DNA of 64,000 nucleotides. Origin: Phycisphaerales bacterium (GTDB lineage: Bacteria; Planctomycetota; Phycisphaerae; Phycisphaerales; UBA1924). The DNA lies in assembly GCA_035627955.1 (NCBI GenBank), contig DASPKU010000012.1, forward strand, positions 186,001-250,000. Direction: 5' to 3'. Positions 5,968 through 53,323 of this stretch are shown here, piece after piece. Within the stretch, counting starts at the first letter, position 1, and the number at the start of each line of letters is the position of its first letter. The notes below the pieces were generated by a model. That model saw only the letters and a program-made list of their open reading frames with translations. It did no database searches and was not told where the DNA came from. The position numbers and the translations under genes were made by a program.

Positions 5968-6000
5968 AAGGGCCGCCCTCACCACGAGGGCGGCCCTTTT
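5968..6000 (+). terminator. Rho-independent terminator of the rpoBC operon
   Basis: A 13-bp perfect stem (AAGGGCCGCCCTC at 5968-5980 against 5986-5998), a 5-base loop and a following T-run. It lies 60 bases after the rpoC stop and separates rpoC from the NACHT gene. Confidence 0.85.
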
Positions 6001-6092
6001 CGCACTGCGCGGTCTCGTTAGCCGGCATGTCCGTCGCTCATCCCGCGCCGCTATGATCCCGGCGATCAATCGCATCGGAGAACCGGGCAGCA

Positions 6093-7910
6093 ATGGCAGA
6101 CGAGGTACAGCAACTCGACATCAACGAAGTAGTCGCAAGCCTCGTGGCACGGACTGCGCAAGGACTTGGGCAGACCCTATTGGGTGGTGGAAAGAGCGTA
6201 CTCGACGAAGCTCGCGTAAGGCTTGGCAGTGCCTTCACCCGCTACCTCGACGAGCAGCTCAAGCGCCGCAGTCAGATCCGTACACTCCTTTACCGGGACG
6301 CGCCACAGTTCATCTACAACTTCTATGTCCCCCAGGACCTGCAGTTTCGCAATGACGACGTGCTCAAGAACGTCGGCGCCGTTTCACTGCTGAGCAGAGC
6401 GAAGCACTGCGTCATCGTCGGCATGGCCGGAATGGGCAAGTCCACCCTCTTGCGCCATCTGTTCGTCGACTTTGCCAAGACCACCAATCACGTTCCACTC
6501 TTCATCGAACTGAAGGGCGTCAACCCAAATGGACAAACGCTGGAATCGCTGATCGAGGCCGAACTGTCGCTTCCATCCCTCAACTTGGCCCCCGGTGCAA
6601 TCAAACGAGCATTTGAGAAGGGACAGTTCGTGCTGCTGCTAGATGGGTTTGACGAGGTGAACCTCGAGAAACAGGATGCGGTTTCGACTGCGATCCAGAG
6701 GCTTGCCAACGAGAATCCAGCCTTGCCGATCCTCGTCACGTCGCGCCCTGATGACCGGTTCATCGGATGGGTGGGGTTTAGCAGTGTGACCGTGCTACCG
6801 CTATCGCTAGAGAAGGTCCGCACCCTTATCGCAAGGATCGAATACGACGAGGGCACCAAGATCCGGTTCCTCGCGGACATTGAGTCCACCCTTTGGCAGA
6901 CTCATCAGTCGTTCCTTTCGAACCCGCTGCTTCTAACAATCATGCTGATTACGTACTCGCATAACGCGAGCGTGCCCTCACGCATGCATCTGTTCTACTC
7001 GCAGGTTTTCGAGACGCTTTGGAACCGTCACGACGCTCTGAAAGACGGGTACAAGCGCACGCTGAGTTCAAACCTCGAGAAGGACGATTTCGTGGCGATG
7101 CTTGAGGCATTCGCATTCAAGACCTACTGGGACGCGAAAACGACCTTGACCCTTCAAGAGGTGGATGAAACGCTAGCGTTTGCACTGAAGGTGGCCCGAG
7201 TCCCCGGCGATCGGTCGAAGTGTCTGGAGGACTTAGTCCGAGCACTGTGCATCCTGAACCGCGATGGACTGCACATTAGTTATACCCACCGGTCCTTCCA
7301 GGAATACTACGCCGCTCGTTTTCTGTTGCGAGCCTCACCTGATCAGCGCGGCAAACTCATCGAACGCGTCGTGAAGAATTCGTCGCGCGCGGACCAGGTG
7401 CTTCAGTTGATGTGGGAGATGGACAAGGCTCTCGTCGAGCGAGAGCTACTAATCCCAAAGCTGTCGGAGTTGGAGGAGTCCCTGAAGGGGAAGTCCGGCG
7501 ACGACCGTTTGGTAGCGTTCACCTCATTCTGGGCCCAGCGACTCACGATCGTCAATACTGTGAACAGGGGCGCATTACTGCTCCATACCGCCAAGCAGCC
7601 CGAGGCTCCAATCTTTGACTTCGTTTCCACCCACTACCGGAAGGCGGAGTGGGAGAAGATCAAGGAAACCTTTGGGAAGCGAAACGCGGACGAAGTCTCA
7701 CGTGGGATTCTGGCTCGACGGCACGATGATAACGGCAATCTTGAGATAGACGCGGCAGACTTCGAGGGCAATCGTGAGATTATCCGCGAACTTGCGGGCG
7801 TGAGGTTTCACCATTCGACAGAGGCCATGGATCTTTTGCTCCGGATCCTTGATGACATGCGCCGTGAACACAAAGAGCGATCTGTTTCACTCGACGAGCT
7901 CTTTTCATAA
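6093..7910 (+). CDS. NACHT-domain NTPase (STAND family), candidate antiphage protein
   Basis: A 605-residue signal-transduction ATPase with numerous domains. Residues 1-85 are helical. The NACHT module follows with Walker A GMAGMGKST (110-118), Walker B VLLLDGFDEV (about 180-189), a sensor-like LVTSRPDDR near 212, and the helical NACHT-associated part with THRSFQEYYAARFLL near 407. About 170 C-terminal residues hold no recognised repeats. Bacterial NACHT proteins of this build are known NLR-related antiphage proteins, some with a short C-terminal sensor; such a role here is inferred from architecture. It has its own transcription unit after the rpoC terminator. Sampled lines are near 50-55% GC, clearly below the neighbours, with different codon choice, which suggests recent transfer. 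Confidence 0.9.
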   Translation: MADEVQQLDINEVVASLVARTAQGLGQTLLGGGKSVLDEARVRLGSAFTRYLDEQLKRRSQIRTLLYRDAPQFIYNFYVPQDLQFRNDDVLKNVGAVSLLSRAKHCVIVGMAGMGKSTLLRHLFVDFAKTTNHVPLFIELKGVNPNGQTLESLIEAELSLPSLNLAPGAIKRAFEKGQFVLLLDGFDEVNLEKQDAVSTAIQRLANENPALPILVTSRPDDRFIGWVGFSSVTVLPLSLEKVRTLIARIEYDEGTKIRFLADIESTLWQTHQSFLSNPLLLTIMLITYSHNASVPSRMHLFYSQVFETLWNRHDALKDGYKRTLSSNLEKDDFVAMLEAFAFKTYWDAKTTLTLQEVDETLAFALKVARVPGDRSKCLEDLVRALCILNRDGLHISYTHRSFQEYYAARFLLRASPDQRGKLIERVVKNSSRADQVLQLMWEMDKALVERELLIPKLSELEESLKGKSGDDRLVAFTSFWAQRLTIVNTVNRGALLLHTAKQPEAPIFDFVSTHYRKAEWEKIKETFGKRNADEVSRGILARRHDDNGNLEIDAADFEGNREIIRELAGVRFHHSTEAMDLLLRILDDMRREHKERSVSLDELFS

Positions 7911-7949
7911 AAGGCGTCACTTCCCCGGCAGGTGGCATCACCCTCGTAC

Positions 7950-7979
7950 CACCACCTTTCGGCTCTGCGAAAGGTGATG
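7950..7979. repeat. family A-like hairpin (copy l, inverted)
   Basis: The stem CACCTTTC / GAAAGGTG encloses the loop GGCTCTGC. That loop is the reverse complement of the loop in the neighbouring copy at 8003-8037, so the two elements face each other while their stems differ. Confidence 0.6.
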
Positions 7980-8002
7980 ATTGGACGTGGGCCGCCGCGG
8001 GG

Positions 8003-8037
8003 GCACCACCATTCGCAGAGCCGAATGGTGGTGGCAC
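8003..8037. repeat. family A hairpin repeat (copy k)
   Basis: The stem CACCACCATTC / GAATGGTGGTG has the 8-base loop GCAGAGCC and the family edge GCAC on both sides. It stands immediately before the 21-bp array. Confidence 0.7.
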
Positions 8038-8040
8038 GGC

Positions 8041-8355
8041 TCCGTTACGCCACGCCACCCGTCCGGTACGACACGTCCCGCGTTCGTTACGCGACGGCAC
8101 TATTTCCGTAAGAGTTCTGGGGGATCGCGTACGGAATCCCGCGCGTTCCTTACGTGGCGGGGGCGGTCGCGTAAGGACTGCGCGGGACCGCGTACGGAAA
8201 CGCCGCCGCGGCGTATGCGGGGCGGGGGAATCGGTGCGGAATCCGCGGCGTCGGGCACGCGGGGCGGGCGGTTCCGCGGGCTTTGGGCCGCGTTCCAGGC
8301 CGATCCTGTGCGGTTGCGGTGGTGTGGGGATGCGTCCGGGGGCGTCGGCGGCCCA
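8041..8355 (+). repeat. 21-bp phased degenerate tandem array (up to 15 units)
   Basis: Successive 21-base units begin T(T/C)C(C/G) and carry a TA step followed by CG or AG at a fixed place. The TA dinucleotide falls at 8046, 8067, 8088, 8109, 8130, 8151, 8172, 8193 and 8214, exactly 21 bases apart nine times. The motif is GTTACG, GTACG, CGTAAG or CTTACG, with about 12 variable bases between. Units from 8230 on keep the phase of the leading T but have lost the TA. The period equals two helical turns and seven codons. It ends about 65 bases before the FnIII-like gene. There is no CRISPR-like conserved repeat. See findings for the second array. Confidence 0.8.
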
Positions 8356-8460
8356 AACGTGTCAAAAACGGCAGAGTCCGCTCAACCCCCCCACCCCTCA
8401 CGCCGATGCTGTCTCCATCATGCCTATCCAGCGCATCATCCGCTCCCCCGCTCCGCCGCC

Positions 8461-9120
8461 GTGAACTTCGCGGGCCAGCACGTCGAGCCCTTCCAGCAGC
8501 ACGCGGCGTTGCTCGGGCTCAGCCCGCAGCAGCTCGCCAGCTACGAGCAGGCCGTGGTGAACGCGCAGGACGCCCTCGCGCAGGCCACCGCCGCGAAGCA
8601 GGCGTGGAAGACGGCGGCCTCGCTCGCCGCGACCCGTATGCGCGAACTGAACCGTGTGATGACCGAGACGGTGACGCTGATCGACCTCAACGCCGCGAAC
8701 GCGGCGGACCCGATGGAGCTGTACCAGGCCGCGATGCTGACCCCGCCCAACACCCCGGGCGTGATGGCCGCGCCGGGGCCGTGCACGCACCTCCGCGCCA
8801 CGCTCAACACCGACGGCTCGCTGACGATCCAGTGGAAGTGCAAGAACCCCGCCAACGCCCACGGCACGATCTACCAGGTCCTGCGGCGGCTGCCGAGTGC
8901 CGACGGCGGCTGGGGCCCGTTCACGCAGGTCGCGCTCGCGGGCCGTAAACACTTCCGCGACGGCACCCTGCCCGCCGGCGTGGGAACCGTGCAGTACACC
9001 GTGCAGGCCCGCCGCGTCGACGTGCTGGGCCCGGTGTGCGCGCCCTTCACGGTGCAGCTGGGGGCGGGGGCGCTCACGGCCGGCGGGGAAACCGCGGGCG
9101 AGGCCAGGCTGGCGGCGTGA
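8461..9120 (+). CDS. small helical plus fibronectin-III-like protein
   Basis: About 219 residues from a GTG codon. Residues 1-90 form a helical region that starts VNFAGQHVEPF; a Pro-rich linker and one FnIII-like beta domain (about 105-205) follow. The second copy at 52392-52808 matches only this FnIII part. No signal peptide is seen. The start is unclear: an ATG at 8420 opens a 14-codon frame (MPIQRIIRSPAPPP) that stops at 8462-8464, overlapping the GTG in another frame. This could mean that a one-base frameshift has split a natural N-terminus from the rest. It lies directly downstream of the 21-bp array. Function is unknown. Confidence 0.65.
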   Translation: MNFAGQHVEPFQQHAALLGLSPQQLASYEQAVVNAQDALAQATAAKQAWKTAASLAATRMRELNRVMTETVTLIDLNAANAADPMELYQAAMLTPPNTPGVMAAPGPCTHLRATLNTDGSLTIQWKCKNPANAHGTIYQVLRRLPSADGGWGPFTQVALAGRKHFRDGTLPAGVGTVQYTVQARRVDVLGPVCAPFTVQLGAGALTAGGETAGEARLAA

Positions 9121-9207
9121 CACCCACAGGAGACTCGAAACACAGCGCCCACGAAGAACACCAGGGAGAGGCTTGGAAGGACATGAATGAGCGGGCTGAT
9201 CCCTGGT

Positions 9208-10503
9208 TCAACCCCGCTCCGCCAGCGTGAAGCAGAACGTGGTGCCCTGCACGCCCGGCGGGGGGTCCTCGATCCAGATGCGGCCGCGGTGGCGTTCGAT
9301 GATGCGGCGGGTGAGGGCCAGGCCGGCGCCGGTGCCGGCGTTGGGCGGGTCGTGGGGGTCGCCGGGCTCGGGGCGGCGGAACATGCGGAAGACCCTGTCG
9401 CGCTTCTCGCGCGGGATGCCCGCGCCGTTGTCGCGCACGTAGAACACCGGCGGCTTGACGTCCACCGAGGCGCCCAGCCCGATCACGCCCATGTCGAGCA
9501 CGCCCACCTCGATCACCTTCGGGCTGGAGCGGTTGTACTTGACGCCGTTGGCGATCAGGTTCGTAAAGACGCGGATGATGCTCGCCTCGTCGCAGCGCAC
9601 CGGCGGCAGGGGGCCGCGCACAATCACCTCCGCGTTCTCCTGCTTGAGCCAGGGCTCGAGCGTCTGGACCACGCGCCCCGCCACGGCCGCGGGGTCCACC
9701 ACGGCGGGCCCGGACTCACCCGGCTCCGCGGCGCCGGCCGCCGACTCGCGGGCGTAATCGAGCGCGACGCCGAGCATGTGGGCCATCCCCTGGGCGGAGG
9801 CCTTGAGGCGCCCCAGGCGGTGCCGCTCGTCGGGCGTGAGGCGGTCGGCGGTGTCCTCCTCCAGGAACGTGGCCAGGTAGGTGATGCCCCGCAGCGGCTC
9901 CTTGAGGTCATGGGCCACGGCGTGGGAGAACTCGTCGAGCCGCTCGTTGGCCTCGCGGAGCTCGCGCTCCGCCCGCGTGCGCTGCCGCACCTCCGCCTCC
10001 AGCTCGCGGGCGCGGCGGTCGAGCTCCGTGAACGCGGCCCGCTCACGGGCCACCGAGCGGCGGTGCGCCTCGCTGAGCACGACCACGCCCGCGCCCAGCA
10101 CGCCGTTGAGGGCCACGGCCACGATGTCCGCCGGGCGCGACACCGCGAAGAAGCCCTCGGGCGGCAGCGACCAGATGGACGTAAGGGTCGCGACCACCAC
10201 CGCGGTCGCGCCCGGGAGCACGCCCAGGCACAAAGCCGCGACCACGATGCCCAGGAACTCAAAGGGCAGGAACTGGCCCATGGGGCCCAGCAGCCGCTCG
10301 GGGACGACCTGCAGCGCGTGCGCCCCCGCCATCAGCGGCAGGGCGAGCAGGCACCGCGCCCACAGCGGGAGCCGGAGGGTGGCGTCGAAGTAGTTGCGAC
10401 GCGGGAGCGCCATGCCGGTCTTTGTATCAATCCGCTCCGCGGGGGGCAACGAAAACCGGCGTGAATCGGCGTGGTGAGCGCGGAGGCTGAGGCGGGCGCT
10501 CAT
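9208..10503 (-). CDS. membrane sensor histidine kinase
   Basis: A 431-residue kinase. Residues 45-145 contain about four hydrophobic segments resembling a small membrane sensor region, and a coiled coil runs from 150 to 192. The dimerisation/phosphoacceptor helix EFSHAVAHDLKEPLRG has H198 as the likely phosphorylated histidine. The catalytic ATPase domain has N-box TNLIANGVKYN, G1 DNGAGIP and G2 GTGAGLAL. No receiver domain and no adjacent response regulator are seen. It follows the universal stress protein by about 30 bases on the same strand, as third gene of an antiporter-USP-kinase unit. Neither candidate start (10503, or the internal ATG at 10413) has a good Shine-Dalgarno; 10413 would still keep all membrane segments. 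Confidence 0.88.
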   Translation of the reverse strand: MSARLSLRAHHADSRRFSLPPAERIDTKTGMALPRRNYFDATLRLPLWARCLLALPLMAGAHALQVVPERLLGPMGQFLPFEFLGIVVAALCLGVLPGATAVVVATLTSIWSLPPEGFFAVSRPADIVAVALNGVLGAGVVVLSEAHRRSVARERAAFTELDRRARELEAEVRQRTRAERELREANERLDEFSHAVAHDLKEPLRGITYLATFLEEDTADRLTPDERHRLGRLKASAQGMAHMLGVALDYARESAAGAAEPGESGPAVVDPAAVAGRVVQTLEPWLKQENAEVIVRGPLPPVRCDEASIIRVFTNLIANGVKYNRSSPKVIEVGVLDMGVIGLGASVDVKPPVFYVRDNGAGIPREKRDRVFRMFRRPEPGDPHDPPNAGTGAGLALTRRIIERHRGRIWIEDPPPGVQGTTFCFTLAERG

Positions 10504-10532
10504 GCGGGCGCGGATGGAAGCCCGACCCCCAC

Positions 10533-11018
10533 TCAGTCCCCCCGCAGCACGAGCACCGGCGCATCAAGCTCGGACTCCATCCGCACCGTGGGGTCCAGCC
10601 GCTTCTCCATGGCGCCCAGCAGGCCGGTGGGCCGCTCGGCGTGCATGACCAGCAGGTCGGCGTGCACGCGGCGGCCGTACTCCAGCACCTCCTGCGCAGG
10701 ATCCACGCCAAAGAGCACGGCGTAGCGCACGTCGAGCCCGGGCGTGCGTTCCACCACGGGCCCGACGCACTCCCGCAGCCGCGCCAGCTCGCGGGCCTCG
10801 TACGCGTTCCGCTCCTTCTCGGAGGAGGCCTCCGCGGGCGAGCGGTAATGCAGCTTCATCCACGGCGGCGTGCACGCGTGCACCACGTGCAGCACCGCCC
10901 CCCCACCACCCGACCCCCGCGCGATCACCGCCGCCTGCTCCATCAGCCGCGGGCAGCTCTGCGAGAAGTCCACCCACACCAGCACGTTCCTGTACACCGG
11001 TTCGTTCGCCATCACCAT
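10533..11018 (-). CDS. universal stress protein (UspA family)
   Basis: A single-domain USP of 161 residues. It has the N-terminal strand NVLVWVDFS, the middle strand and loop around LHVVHA, and a C-terminal part with HADLLVMHAERPTGLLG and VLVLRGD. In ATP-binding family members the C-terminal pattern is G-x2-G-x9-G-(S/T); here it is GLLGAMEKRLDP, so nucleotide binding is uncertain. Its start overlaps the end of the antiporter gene by 7 bases, and a USP beside an ion/proton antiporter is a common pairing in which the USP senses energy state or modulates the transporter. Confidence 0.88.
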   Translation of the reverse strand: MVMANEPVYRNVLVWVDFSQSCPRLMEQAAVIARGSGGGGAVLHVVHACTPPWMKLHYRSPAEASSEKERNAYEARELARLRECVGPVVERTPGLDVRYAVLFGVDPAQEVLEYGRRVHADLLVMHAERPTGLLGAMEKRLDPTVRMESELDAPVLVLRGD

Positions 11019-16500: not shown

Positions 16501-16610
16501 GAAAAGCGGAAAGCGGAAACCGGAAAGCGGAGCAAGACTGTTGATGAGTCTACAAGCGGGTACGCGCCACGCCACGTTCTTCCGCTTTCCGCTTTCTGAT
16601 TTCCGCTTTC
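16501..16610. repeat. inverted arms of a GGAAAGC-type short tandem repeat
   Basis: The left arm (16501-16532) is a run of GCGGAAA units; the right arm (16580-16610) is its near-perfect reverse complement. The arms are about 48 bases apart and can form a long imperfect hairpin. The right arm runs into the pgpA stop codon. A second element of the same design with a different unit (GGAAGTC) lies on the other side of pgpA. Confidence 0.75.
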
Positions 16611-17142: not shown

Positions 17143-17230
17143 GGAAGTCGGAAGTGCGAAGTCGGAAGTCGGAACAGGAAAACGCACCCGTCGGCGTTAC
17201 TCCGACTTCCCACTTCCGACTTCCGACTTC
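17143..17230. repeat. inverted arms of a GGAAGTC-type short tandem repeat
   Basis: Left arm 17143-17174 (GGAAGTC units) and right arm 17200-17230 (reverse complement) surround a 25-base loop with AACGCACCCGTCGGCG. The right arm supplies the last ten or so codons and the stop of pgsA (SKSEVGSGKSE). Confidence 0.75.
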
Positions 17231-51594: not shown

Positions 51595-51843
51595 ATGACC
51601 ATCAACATCCCTGACGACATCCTGCAGCGGGCGGGGCTGACGGAGCGCGAGGTGCTGATCGAGCTGGCGTGCAGGCTGTTTGATGCGGAGAAGCTCGGGA
51701 AGGGGCTGGCCGCGCGGATGTGCGGGCTGAAGCGGATCGAGTTCGAGGAAGAGTTGCGGAAGCGCAAGCTGGCGGTGTACCACACGAGCCTGGAGGAGTA
51801 CGAGCGCGAGATGGGGCGTGCGGGCGATCGGAAGGCCGGCTGA
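51595..51843 (+). CDS. UPF0175-family antitoxin
   Basis: An 82-residue protein: MTINIPDDILQRAGL followed by a helix with EREVLIELACRLFDAEKLGKG and LAARMCGLKRIEFEEELRKRKL, which fits the UPF0175 (helix-turn-helix) family, usually the antitoxin partner of a DUF3368 PIN protein. It probably binds DNA and represses the pair. The stop is three bases before the toxin ATG. Confidence 0.85.
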   Translation: MTINIPDDILQRAGLTEREVLIELACRLFDAEKLGKGLAARMCGLKRIEFEEELRKRKLAVYHTSLEEYEREMGRAGDRKAG

Positions 51844-51846
51844 GGC

Positions 51847-52332
51847 ATGCTTGTCGTCAGCGACACGTCGCCGTTGCGTGGGCTGCAGGTGCTCGGGCTG
51901 ACTCACCTGCTTCCTCTCTGGTACGGGCAGGTCGTAGTTCCGACCGCAGACGCGGCAGAACTGACCGTGCCGATCGCGGCCGCGGGGCCGTTCCCGTTCG
52001 CCCATCATCCGTTCATCAGGGTCGCCGCCCCTTCGGACCTCGGGCGGGTCCAAACGCTGCTCCAGCAGGTGGACAAGGGCGAGGCCGAGGCGATCGCGCT
52101 GGCCCTTGAGTTGAACGTGACGACGATCCTGATGGACGAGGTGGACGGGCGAGCGGTGGCGCGTCGCCTGGGCCTTTCACCAACCGGTGTTCTGGGGATG
52201 CTCGTGCGGGCAAAGCGTGAACGCCTCATTGCCGCCGCGTCTCCGCTGATCGAGCGGCTTGAGCGCGAGATTGAGTTCCGTGTGTCCGCTGCACTGCGCG
52301 AGAGCGTGCTCCGGGACGCGGGTGAACTCTGA
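51847..52332 (+). CDS. DUF3368 PIN-domain toxin
   Basis: A 161-residue PIN-like RNase. VVSDTSPLRGL gives the first acidic residue, GEAEAIALALEL the middle Glu and LMDEVDGRAVARRLGL the later Asp; GTxxxLxxAK-like GVLGMLVRAKRERLI follows, as in DUF3368 proteins. It is paired with the UPF0175 antitoxin directly upstream. The family N-terminus usually reads SNSSPLI; here it is SDTSPLR, so the active-site acid is kept. Confidence 0.87.
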   Translation: MLVVSDTSPLRGLQVLGLTHLLPLWYGQVVVPTADAAELTVPIAAAGPFPFAHHPFIRVAAPSDLGRVQTLLQQVDKGEAEAIALALELNVTTILMDEVDGRAVARRLGLSPTGVLGMLVRAKRERLIAAASPLIERLEREIEFRVSAALRESVLRDAGEL

Positions 52333-52391: not shown

Positions 52392-52808
52392 TTAGGCAGG
52401 GATTCGCGCCAGGAGGGGCGGCCCATTCTGCGCGGCCGGGACACCGGGTGCGGCCCGCGCGCTGCCCAGGGCCACGCTGAGGATCGGCGACCAGGGCCCG
52501 CTCACGTCGGCGCGCTGGCCCTGCACGGTGTACTCAACGCCCGTGACGCCCGCGGGCACGGTGTTGTCGGTGAATCGCTTGGCGCCGGTGACTCCCAGGA
52601 ACGAGAACTCGCGCTCGCCCGCGAGGCGGCGGCGCACGATGTAGGTCGTGCCCTGCGTGCCCCGAGGATTCCGCGCCTTCCATGAGATCTCCAGGGCCCC
52701 GTCACCGCTGATGAGCCGGGCCGCGAGTTCTTTCGGCTGCGCCGGCGCGGAGGCCGGCTGCGGTTTGCAGGGTTGCGGTGATTGGCCGGACGTGCAGATT
52801 CGTGGCAC
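52392..52808 (-). CDS. FnIII-like protein, short copy
   Basis: 138 residues. Residues 1-30 are Pro/Gln-rich; one FnIII-like domain (ISGDGALEISWKARNPRG, TTYIVRRRL, KRFTDNTVPAGVTGVEYTV) closely follows the order of the domain in the gene at 8461 (LNTDGSLTIQWKCKNP, GTLPAGVGTVQYTV). The helical N-terminal half of that protein is missing. The frame remains open upstream as far as 53366 but has no ATG, GTG or TTG, so 52808 is the only plausible start unless the gene is a broken fusion. It sits beside the second 21-bp array, like its paralogue. Confidence 0.65.
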   Translation of the reverse strand: MPRICTSGQSPQPCKPQPASAPAQPKELAARLISGDGALEISWKARNPRGTQGTTYIVRRRLAGEREFSFLGVTGAKRFTDNTVPAGVTGVEYTVQGQRADVSGPWSPILSVALGSARAAPGVPAAQNGPPLLARIPA

Positions 52809-52913
52809 GGCGCGGTCCGCGGCTGTGATTGAGCGGTCAGTCTGGCGGAATGACTGGTCTGTGCCGCGGGCTGACTGCTCTGTTTCGGGATCGCAGCGGT
52901 CAGGGCCAAGCGC
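52809..52913 (-). repeat. 21-bp phased tandem array 2 (five units)
   Basis: The 8-base motif (G/C)(C/T)G(G/C)TC(A/T/C)G starts at 52812, 52833, 52854, 52875 and 52896 on the plus strand, exactly 21 bases apart. In gene orientation the units end in AC(A/T)GACC(A/G)(G/C)TCA-type sequence with nine variable bases. The array abuts the start of the short FnIII-like gene. The period is the same as in the array at 8041, while the conserved motif differs. Confidence 0.7.
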
Positions 52914-52960: not shown

Positions 52961-53323
52961 GCCCGAACGTCAGTGCGCGCGGGTGTCGCGCAACCGAGAG
53001 GGCCTCAAGGCCGGCCCTCTCGGGCTCTCCCTGGCCCCTCTGCGTGATGGGGCGCGTGTCGATTGCGCGGGCGGCTTGTCTTGAGCAGGGAGTCGCAAGA
53101 GGGGCGGCAGCCCCTTTTGCACCCGCGGAACTGCTGAAGCGCAGGGCACGCCCGAGCGTCAGTGCGCGCGGGTGTCGCGCAACCGAGAGGGCCTCAAGGC
53201 CGGCCCTCTCGGGCTCTCCCTGGCCACTCTGTGTGATGCCGCGCCTGCCGAGCGCGCGGACGGCTTGCCTTAAGCAGGGAGTCGCAAGAGGGGCGGCAGC
53301 CCCTTTTGCACGCGCGGAACTGC
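52961..53323. repeat. 189-bp tandem duplication (two copies)
   Basis: Copies 52961-53134 and 53150-53323 are strongly similar over 174 bases at a distance of 189. Each contains the hairpin CCGAGAGGGC / GCCCTCTCGG and the strings GGGAGTCGCAAGAGGGGCGG and CCCCTTTTGCAC. No gene is supported on either strand. 189 equals nine times 21, the period of the adjoining array, which may or may not be chance. Confidence 0.8.

What the first reader, a model, noticed from the sequence alone, without database searches (positions are those of the whole stretch)
8041..8355. Strictly 21-bp-phased array beside a small FnIII-like gene
A TA step in a C/G-K-TA-(C/A)-G motif is repeated nine times at exactly 21-base steps (8046 to 8214), and a leading T keeps the same phase for up to 15 units. 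About 9 bases are conserved per unit and about 12 are free. Twenty-one bases is two helical turns, so the motif faces one side of the DNA, as expected for a row of protein-binding sites or a structural array; it is also seven codons. A second array with the same period but a different motif (52809-52913) sits against the only other copy of this FnIII-like gene in the window. Two independent arrays at two paralogues argue for a linked gene-plus-array system.
Basis: seen in the sequence. Interest (0 to 1): 0.75.

Follow-up and report, generated by a model that had tools for sequence, protein, structure and literature searches.

The report
Phased palindrome arrays beside FnIII genes
In a group of poorly known planctomycete bacteria, many copies of one small uncharacterised gene carry, upstream, a row of about nine short mirror-symmetric DNA words spaced exactly two helix turns apart, with a different word at nearly every copy, which looks like an undescribed kind of regulatory or anchoring site tied to a gene family.

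Summary
The window's FnIII-like gene has 25 matches in its genome. Of 23 near-full-length copies, 15 have a strict 21-bp array upstream, against 3 true arrays in 1.2 Mb of the same genome sampled away from these genes. Over 88 relatives, 57 have an array, and presence follows the protein tree (15 changes against 25.6 shuffled; 0 of 500). The period is 21; other periods are its harmonics, besides two period-12 cases. Arrays hold about nine units; the word differs between copies but is palindromic beyond chance (z about 5). There is no codon signal and no 10.5-bp A/T phasing. The proteins are a long helix plus an FnIII domain and nearly all end in -AA, usually -LAA in this genome, like its own tmRNA tag. 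Best reading: a multi-site operator, like an iteron row, bound on one DNA face by a dimeric protein, possibly the FnIII protein itself; the binder is not shown. Arrays also occur without the gene and a third of copies lack one: the link is strong, not exclusive.

The parts
8041..8296 (+). 21-bp phased array 1: 9 clear units, about 12 by a penalised fit; core CGTACG
   Evidence: palindrome z 2.9
8461..9120 (+). FnIII-like gene (GTG start assumed): long helix, FnIII domain, disordered tail ending EARLAA
8420..8464 (+). ATG-started piece (MPIQRIIRSPAPPP, stop) that resembles the N-terminus of paralogues L002-L004 but lies in another frame: the window copy looks frameshifted at its 5' end, or there is an assembly error
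52809..52913 (-). 21-bp phased array 2, about 5 units, GGTC-centred, decayed
52443..52829 (-). truncated FnIII-like copy without the helical N-terminus; its end is not -LAA
   Evidence: (L016)

Best explanation
Each array is a multi-site operator: about nine imperfect palindromes placed exactly two helical turns apart, so that dimers of a DNA-binding protein sit side by side on one face of the DNA, cooperatively, upstream of the FnIII-like gene, and control it. Arrays belong to particular subfamilies of this protein. Their word changes quickly, through tandem duplication of 1-, 2- and 3-unit blocks, while spacing, dyad symmetry and length are kept. The most economical candidate binder is the FnIII-like protein itself (a long helix, probably a coiled-coil dimerisation arm, plus a mildly basic FnIII domain) acting on its own gene, with a C-terminal -LAA tail that makes it short-lived through ClpXP. 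Shown: arrays, period, symmetry, linkage, inheritance with the protein tree, FnIII domain, tail. Inferred: DNA binding by a dimer, regulation, identity of the binder, degradation.
For: Linkage: 15 of 23 near-full-length own copies, 57 of 88 rows overall, 3 true arrays in 1.2 Mb of control. Period: 52 of 86 loci at 0.15 or more for 21; 0 of 86 for each of 15-20 and 22-27. Palindromes: 12 of 52 consensus units perfect over 6+6 against 2.5 expected. Presence clustered on the tree, 0 of 500 shuffles as low. Fitted unit number 8-12 in 51 of 65 arrays. Some close relatives share words: L001 with L002, L009 with L011 and with L015. The word of L059 persists in its counterpart in G098. FnIII domain more basic in array-bearing copies, +2.25 against +0.13. 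-AA ends in 24 of 25 own copies against 20 of 654 control genes.
Against: 31 of 88 relatives have no array. Proteins about 60% identical can have unrelated words (L003/L004, L029/L032), and the protein-word correlation is weak (Mantel Pearson r 0.13, p 0.0015; Spearman 0.07, p 0.043). No DNA-binding domain is recognised; FnIII domains are not known to me as DNA binders. The charge difference cannot be tested for independence of descent. Arrays occur at genes that are not FnIII. The close copies L013 and L019 differ in having an array. The -AA end is also present in array-free members.
Confidence: 0.42

Rival explanations
1. The arrays are operators or anchor sites for unlinked dimeric DNA-binding proteins (ordinary regulators or chromosome-organising factors); the FnIII genes are their commonest clients but encode something else, for example a scaffold.
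For: Arrays with the same word as an FnIII-linked array lie at non-FnIII genes: ACAACCGTTGT before gspF; the TTTTGCAGCGCTGC word of L059 before atpA in G022, and a related word between two other genes in G142. No DNA-binding domain is recognised in the FnIII protein.
Against: It needs about as many regulators as words; the immediate neighbours in 8 related-loci loci look different from one another (crude ORF calls read by eye). Array presence follows the FnIII protein tree. The gspF array also shares the non-palindromic spacer of the L011 array, which suggests descent by copying.
Confidence: 0.3
2. The arrays are mutational products without function: minisatellites made by a local duplication process near these genes.
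For: Two- and three-unit higher-order repeats are visible in L004, L006, L189 and L114; words change fast; array DNA does not align between L011 and L015 while the near flank and gene do.
Against: Minisatellites should vary in period; here it is 21. Dyad symmetry, narrow unit number and clustering on the tree are not expected. 0 arrays in 720 kb of a genome without the gene, though only about 2 were expected.
Confidence: 0.14
3. The arrays act as RNA: a transcribed row of hairpins in a long leader or a small RNA.
For: They are upstream of the gene and palindromic; 5 of 12 perfect palindromes have a gap of 3-4, enough for a loop.
Against: 7 of 12 perfect palindromes have a gap of 0-1, too short for a hairpin loop (ties were resolved towards the smaller gap). 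Exact two-turn spacing has no obvious meaning in RNA. No Rfam match in window 6000-11000.
Confidence: 0.08
4. The gene plus array is a small selfish or segregation module (iteron- or centromere-like) that spreads between sites.
For: 25 matches here, 43 in G022, patchy distribution (55 of 150 genomes of the family); one copy in a MAG labelled Fimbriimonadaceae, another phylum, also has an array.
Against: No enzyme in the gene and no shared element ends seen; the recent paralogues L013/L019 share only the gene and about 85 bp before it. No match of the L183 protein in 50,697 phage or 72,556 plasmid records. The MAG may be mis-binned.
Confidence: 0.06

Closest known systems
Plasmid iterons (recalled)
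   Same: About 17-22-bp units, helically phased, several in a row, word differs between replicons
   Different: Chromosomal, many per genome, palindromic units, no replication initiator recognised; an FnIII gene instead
Centromere-like rows of plasmid partition systems such as ParR/parC (recalled)
   Same: Rows of about 20-bp repeats near a small gene that encodes the binder
   Different: The linked protein is a helix plus FnIII domain, not ribbon-helix-helix; many copies per chromosome; a ParM-like neighbour was not looked for systematically
Repeated regulator operators, one dimer per two turns (recalled)
   Same: Palindromes phased on one face, upstream of the gene
   Different: Often eight or more sites, a private word at nearly each paralogue, no recognised DNA-binding domain
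FnIII-domain proteins (e.g. PDB 3mpc)
   Same: FnIII fold: profile E 2.3e-6, Foldseek E 3.5e-5
   Different: N-terminal long helix and an -AA end; no Pfam, NCBIfam or PHROGs family assigned with confidence

Membership tests
FnIII superfamily | FnIII beta-sandwich | tested here: met
   no Pfam model reached its cut-off
Iteron-controlled replicon | Directly repeated 17-22-bp units in helical phase | tested here: met
Iteron-controlled replicon | Adjacent replication initiator (Rep) | tested here: not met
   the linked gene has no Rep match; other neighbours were not scanned except the NACHT gene in the window
Minisatellite / VNTR | Period varies between loci | tested here: not met
   21 and its harmonics over 86 loci, plus two period-12 cases; unit number 6-13 in 61 of 65 arrays
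CRISPR-like array | Constant repeat with unit-specific spacers | tested here: not met
   read from the units: contiguous 21-mers in which whole units recur in 42- and 63-bp blocks
Heptad-coding repeat | Excess of synonymous change in one frame | tested here: not met
   mean z 0.24 over 51 arrays; open frames 3.84 of 6 against 2.97 in column-shuffled units, none of 51 without an open frame, which I do not explain
Intrinsically curved or nucleosome-like DNA | A/T phasing at 10-11 bp | tested here: not met
   A/T covariance about 0 at lags 10 and 11
ClpXP C-motif-1 substrates | C-terminal LAA or similar xAA | tested here: met
   24 of 25 own copies end AA, 18 of 25 LAA; motif from passages of PMC9775585 and PMC3983244
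ClpXP C-motif-1 substrates | Degradation by ClpXP | not testable with these tools
   needs an assay
Autoregulatory DNA-binding protein | Linked protein binds the array | not testable with these tools
   no binding data

The most novel reading that the evidence does not exclude
The family is a new class of sequence-specific DNA-binding proteins built on an FnIII domain and a coiled-coil arm. Each array-bearing paralogue assembles on its own private row of 21-bp palindromes, and protein and row diverge so that dozens of copies in one cell do not cross-react, while an ssrA-like tail keeps them short-lived.
Probability: 0.25. Interest if true: 0.92.

Novelty: new variant of a known kind. Interest (0 to 1): 0.72.

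Why it matters
If the linked protein is the binder, more than a dozen natural protein-word pairs in one genome would give a ready-made test of how DNA specificity diverges between paralogues, and FnIII would join the few immunoglobulin-like folds that read DNA. If it is not, the arrays still mark an undescribed, rigidly phased site type in Phycisphaerales-related genomes. The almost universal -AA end is a second unexpected feature that can be tested at once.

Tried and rejected
Rejected as main readings: codon repeats, curved DNA, minisatellites of mixed period, a unit carried by known phages or plasmids (with the L183 protein). Weak or uninformative: the overall correlation of protein and word; the shared word of L003 and the AI-2E array (p 0.0018 before correction for many comparisons; a strict pattern search found only the L003 array); the charge difference (at most four informative independent pairs, sign test median p 1). 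PADLOC gave Cas12u4 and Cas12f at E about 0.001 over the N-terminal helix of L183 only, nothing for the window protein or L011; I take this as chance between helical stretches, untested. Reading frames open through the array into the gene exist at some loci (L001, L002, L008, L024, L196) but not at others (L004, L007, L011), so a fused product is not general. The first genome-contig scan, with the window protein, found nothing. Structure matches in PDB and viral libraries concern the FnIII domain as far as the listed rows show. Literature: six searches (listings and starts of abstracts only) showed no description of such arrays or of this gene family; the library is open-access only, and most searches were narrow. 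Two papers were seen as passages only.

Rows left out before counts: and one search left out L033, L045, L052 (duplicates of L053, L082, L083) and arrays below a score of 85; one search left out five duplicate or orthologous arrays (L184, L189, L192, L194, L227) and short or weak fits; one search left out L031, L033, L045, L050, L052 and L069; one search left out four control stretches that hold an array or a microsatellite (L095, L114, L135, L141); one search left out truncated or edge copies L016, L025, L031, L036, L069, L081 and duplicates L033, L045, L050, L052, and added six of the 14 related-loci loci. 'Near-full-length' copies include the window copy (5' frameshift) and L012 (a stop near its N-terminus). 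In one search the control genes are long ORFs chosen by a codon-position GC rule, not annotated genes.

Full report
WHAT IS THERE. The window is contig C12:186001-250000 of a 4.26-Mb, 23-contig genome; its GC is 68%. Array 1 has nine TA steps 21 bases apart, 8046-8214, and fades out by about 8296. To remove the coding period of three I used a contrast: matches at lags 21, 42 and 63 minus matches at the other multiples of three, in 189-base windows. On this measure array 1 is the top peak of the window (0.275); the second array is present but weak (0.121). On a short-array measure 1 of 3976 control windows scores as high as the second array. The gene beside array 1 encodes a protein with a predicted 59-residue helix, an FnIII domain and a disordered tail (AlphaFold2 mean pLDDT 80, pTM 0.49, 12 sequences). 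The FnIII domain is confirmed by a profile match to PDB 3mpc (E 2.3e-6) and by Foldseek. Pfam, NCBIfam and PHROGs give no confident family.

THE GENE FAMILY. The genome has 25 matches, 23 of them near full length (two are truncated: L016, L025). One relative, G022, has 43. With a profile, 55 of 150 sampled genomes of the same family have matches at E 1e-10 or better, against 9 of 392 sampled over the phylum, of which 7 belong to this same family. Of 13 records in genome contigs, 8 are titled Phycisphaerae or Phycisphaerales, 2 Planctomycetota, 1 uncultured bacterium, 1 Cyanobacteria and 1 Fimbriimonadaceae; most are MAGs and the odd labels may be mis-binning. One further match is an IMG/VR contig.

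THE ARRAYS FOLLOW THE GENE. Of 25 own copies, 14 have a contrast of 0.2 or more upstream; 15 of the 23 near-full-length copies reach 0.15. Sixty control stretches (1.2 Mb) contain 7 peaks of 0.15 or more: three true arrays, two microsatellite-like runs and two stretches that look like coiled-coil coding; periods 15, 18, 24, 27 and 30 give none at that level. Of 14 loci fetched by the search for related loci, 12 have enough upstream DNA and 10 of these reach 0.15; four of the ten repeat loci already seen through G013 and G019, as their array fits agree. Among 88 protein rows 57 have an array and 31 do not; the quick tree needs 15 changes, the shuffled mean is 25.6 and 0 of 500 shuffles are as low. 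Clades without arrays exist (L010/L012/L018/L020; L088/L089/L092). In the 92 loci every peak above 0.16 is upstream of its gene; one downstream peak of 0.154 was seen at L059. In one search, which looked only upstream, the gap to the gene is 7-568 bases.

PROPERTIES OF THE ARRAYS. Over 86 loci, 52 reach 0.15 at period 21 and none at 15-20 or 22-27; counts at 14, 28 and 35 are harmonics (lag 42 and its like), and period 12 reaches 0.15 at two loci. Fitted unit number: 6-13 in 61 of 65 arrays, commonest 9, 11 and 8 (a few loci are counted twice). Words differ between copies: CGTACG (L001), ACAACCGTTGT (L011), CAGGCCTG (L021), GTGGTCAAA (L003), TTTTRCAGCGCTGC (L059). Consensus units are more palindromic than genomic 21-mers from the same loci: 12 of 52 perfect over six pairs against 2.5 expected, z 5.3; with column-permuted controls 16 of 46 reach p 0.05. 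Two- and three-unit higher-order repeats show growth by tandem duplication. There is no synonymous-change signal; arrays have slightly more open frames than column-shuffled ones (3.84 against 2.97 of 6), which I leave unexplained. There is no A/T phasing at 10-11 bp.

HOW THE WORDS EVOLVE. L001 and L002 (66% identical) share a word. L009 resembles both L011 and L015, while L011 and L015 resemble each other only weakly (scores 6.96, 5.96 and 1.42; null maximum 4.95 of 570), and their arrays do not align as DNA. L003/L004 and L029/L032, about 60% identical, have unrelated words, and the overall correlation is weak. The counterpart of L059 in G098 keeps a related word. So words seem to be inherited over short spans and replaced over longer ones.

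ARRAYS WITHOUT THE GENE. In the 1.2-Mb control they lie before gspF, before an AI-2E transporter gene, and between a kaiC-like gene and an ORF that begins like an RNA-binding (RRM) protein (RRM recalled from the sequence, not searched). No FnIII remnant was found in those three stretches. The gspF array has the L011 word and also its spacer GGAAGGCTGA, and a strict genome-wide pattern search found two neighbouring copies of that word only at these two places. In G022 an array with the L059 word lies before atpA, and G142 has one with a related word between two other genes. G014, with no copy of the gene by two searches, gave no array in 720 kb; G152, with two copies, gave none in 400 kb apart from a 7-bp microsatellite, though five peaks at periods 15 and 27. 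About three arrays would be expected over both at the own-genome rate, so this is suggestive only.

THE TAIL. 24 of 25 own copies end in AA and 18 in LAA, against 20 and 2 of 654 control genes. Over 88 rows 72 end in AA, 10 in AG, 3 in AS, 2 in VA and 1 in SA; in G022 only 13 of 28 end in AA and 10 in AG, although its tmRNA tag is AEPQYALAA. The window genome's tag is ADRNYALAA and that of G019 is ANSGYRLAA; two of ten tag predictions (L295, L297) look spurious. ClpX recognises C-termini that resemble LAA (C-motif-1; passages of PMC3983244 and a table of PMC9775585). I infer a built-in degradation signal; array-free members have the AA end too.

MECHANISM. Palindromes at an exact two-turn pitch, often eight or more in a row, most simply mean dimers lined up on one DNA face. 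Linkage and co-inheritance point to the linked protein as binder or as main client. For self-binding: likely dimer arm, short-lived protein, and a more basic FnIII domain in array-bearing copies (+2.25 against +0.13, p 0.0002 without correction for descent; same direction in own genome, G022 and G023; at most four informative independent pairs, so not testable). Against: no recognised DNA-binding domain, fast word change, arrays at other genes. I give gene-specific operator arrays, bound perhaps by the linked protein, 0.42, and operators for unlinked factors 0.30.

NOVELTY. Helically phased site rows are known in general (iterons, centromere rows, operators; recalled). What I did not find in six searches of an open-access library is a chromosomal gene family in which most copies own a private row with a fixed 21-bp pitch. 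Hence a new variant of a known kind, with a reserve: if the FnIII protein is the binder it would be new in kind.

Noticed in passing
window 8420-8464: The N-terminal codons of the FnIII gene seen in paralogues L002-L004 are present but in another frame from the rest of the gene; the window copy may be frameshifted or mis-assembled.
   Followed up: partly
window 7949-8036: Imperfect inverted repeat just before array 1; similar pieces upstream of L002 and L020, so a dispersed palindromic repeat.
   Followed up: partly
window 16503-16610 and 17143-17230: Two pairs of heptamer runs in inverted orientation (AAGCGGA-type and GGAAGTC-type); similar 7-bp runs in own control L135 and in G152.
   Followed up: partly
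window 6093-7910: NACHT-type STAND ATPase directly upstream of array 1 (PF05729 E 2e-12); weak PADLOC match PDC-S60 (E 4.8e-6).
   Followed up: partly
window 51595-52332: UPF0175 plus DUF3368 gene pair, which looks like a toxin-antitoxin pair (recalled), next to the truncated FnIII copy.
   Followed up: partly
window 52961-53323: 189-bp tandem duplication (92% match) just upstream of array 2.
   Followed up: no
L061, L066, L076, L077, L078 (G022): Repeats with a period of 27 around FnIII genes in G022, related to one another in both orientations.
   Followed up: no
L184 4589-4937: tmRNA gene about 900 bases downstream of an FnIII-like gene in a Phycisphaerae MAG; its tag ends RLAA.
   Followed up: yes
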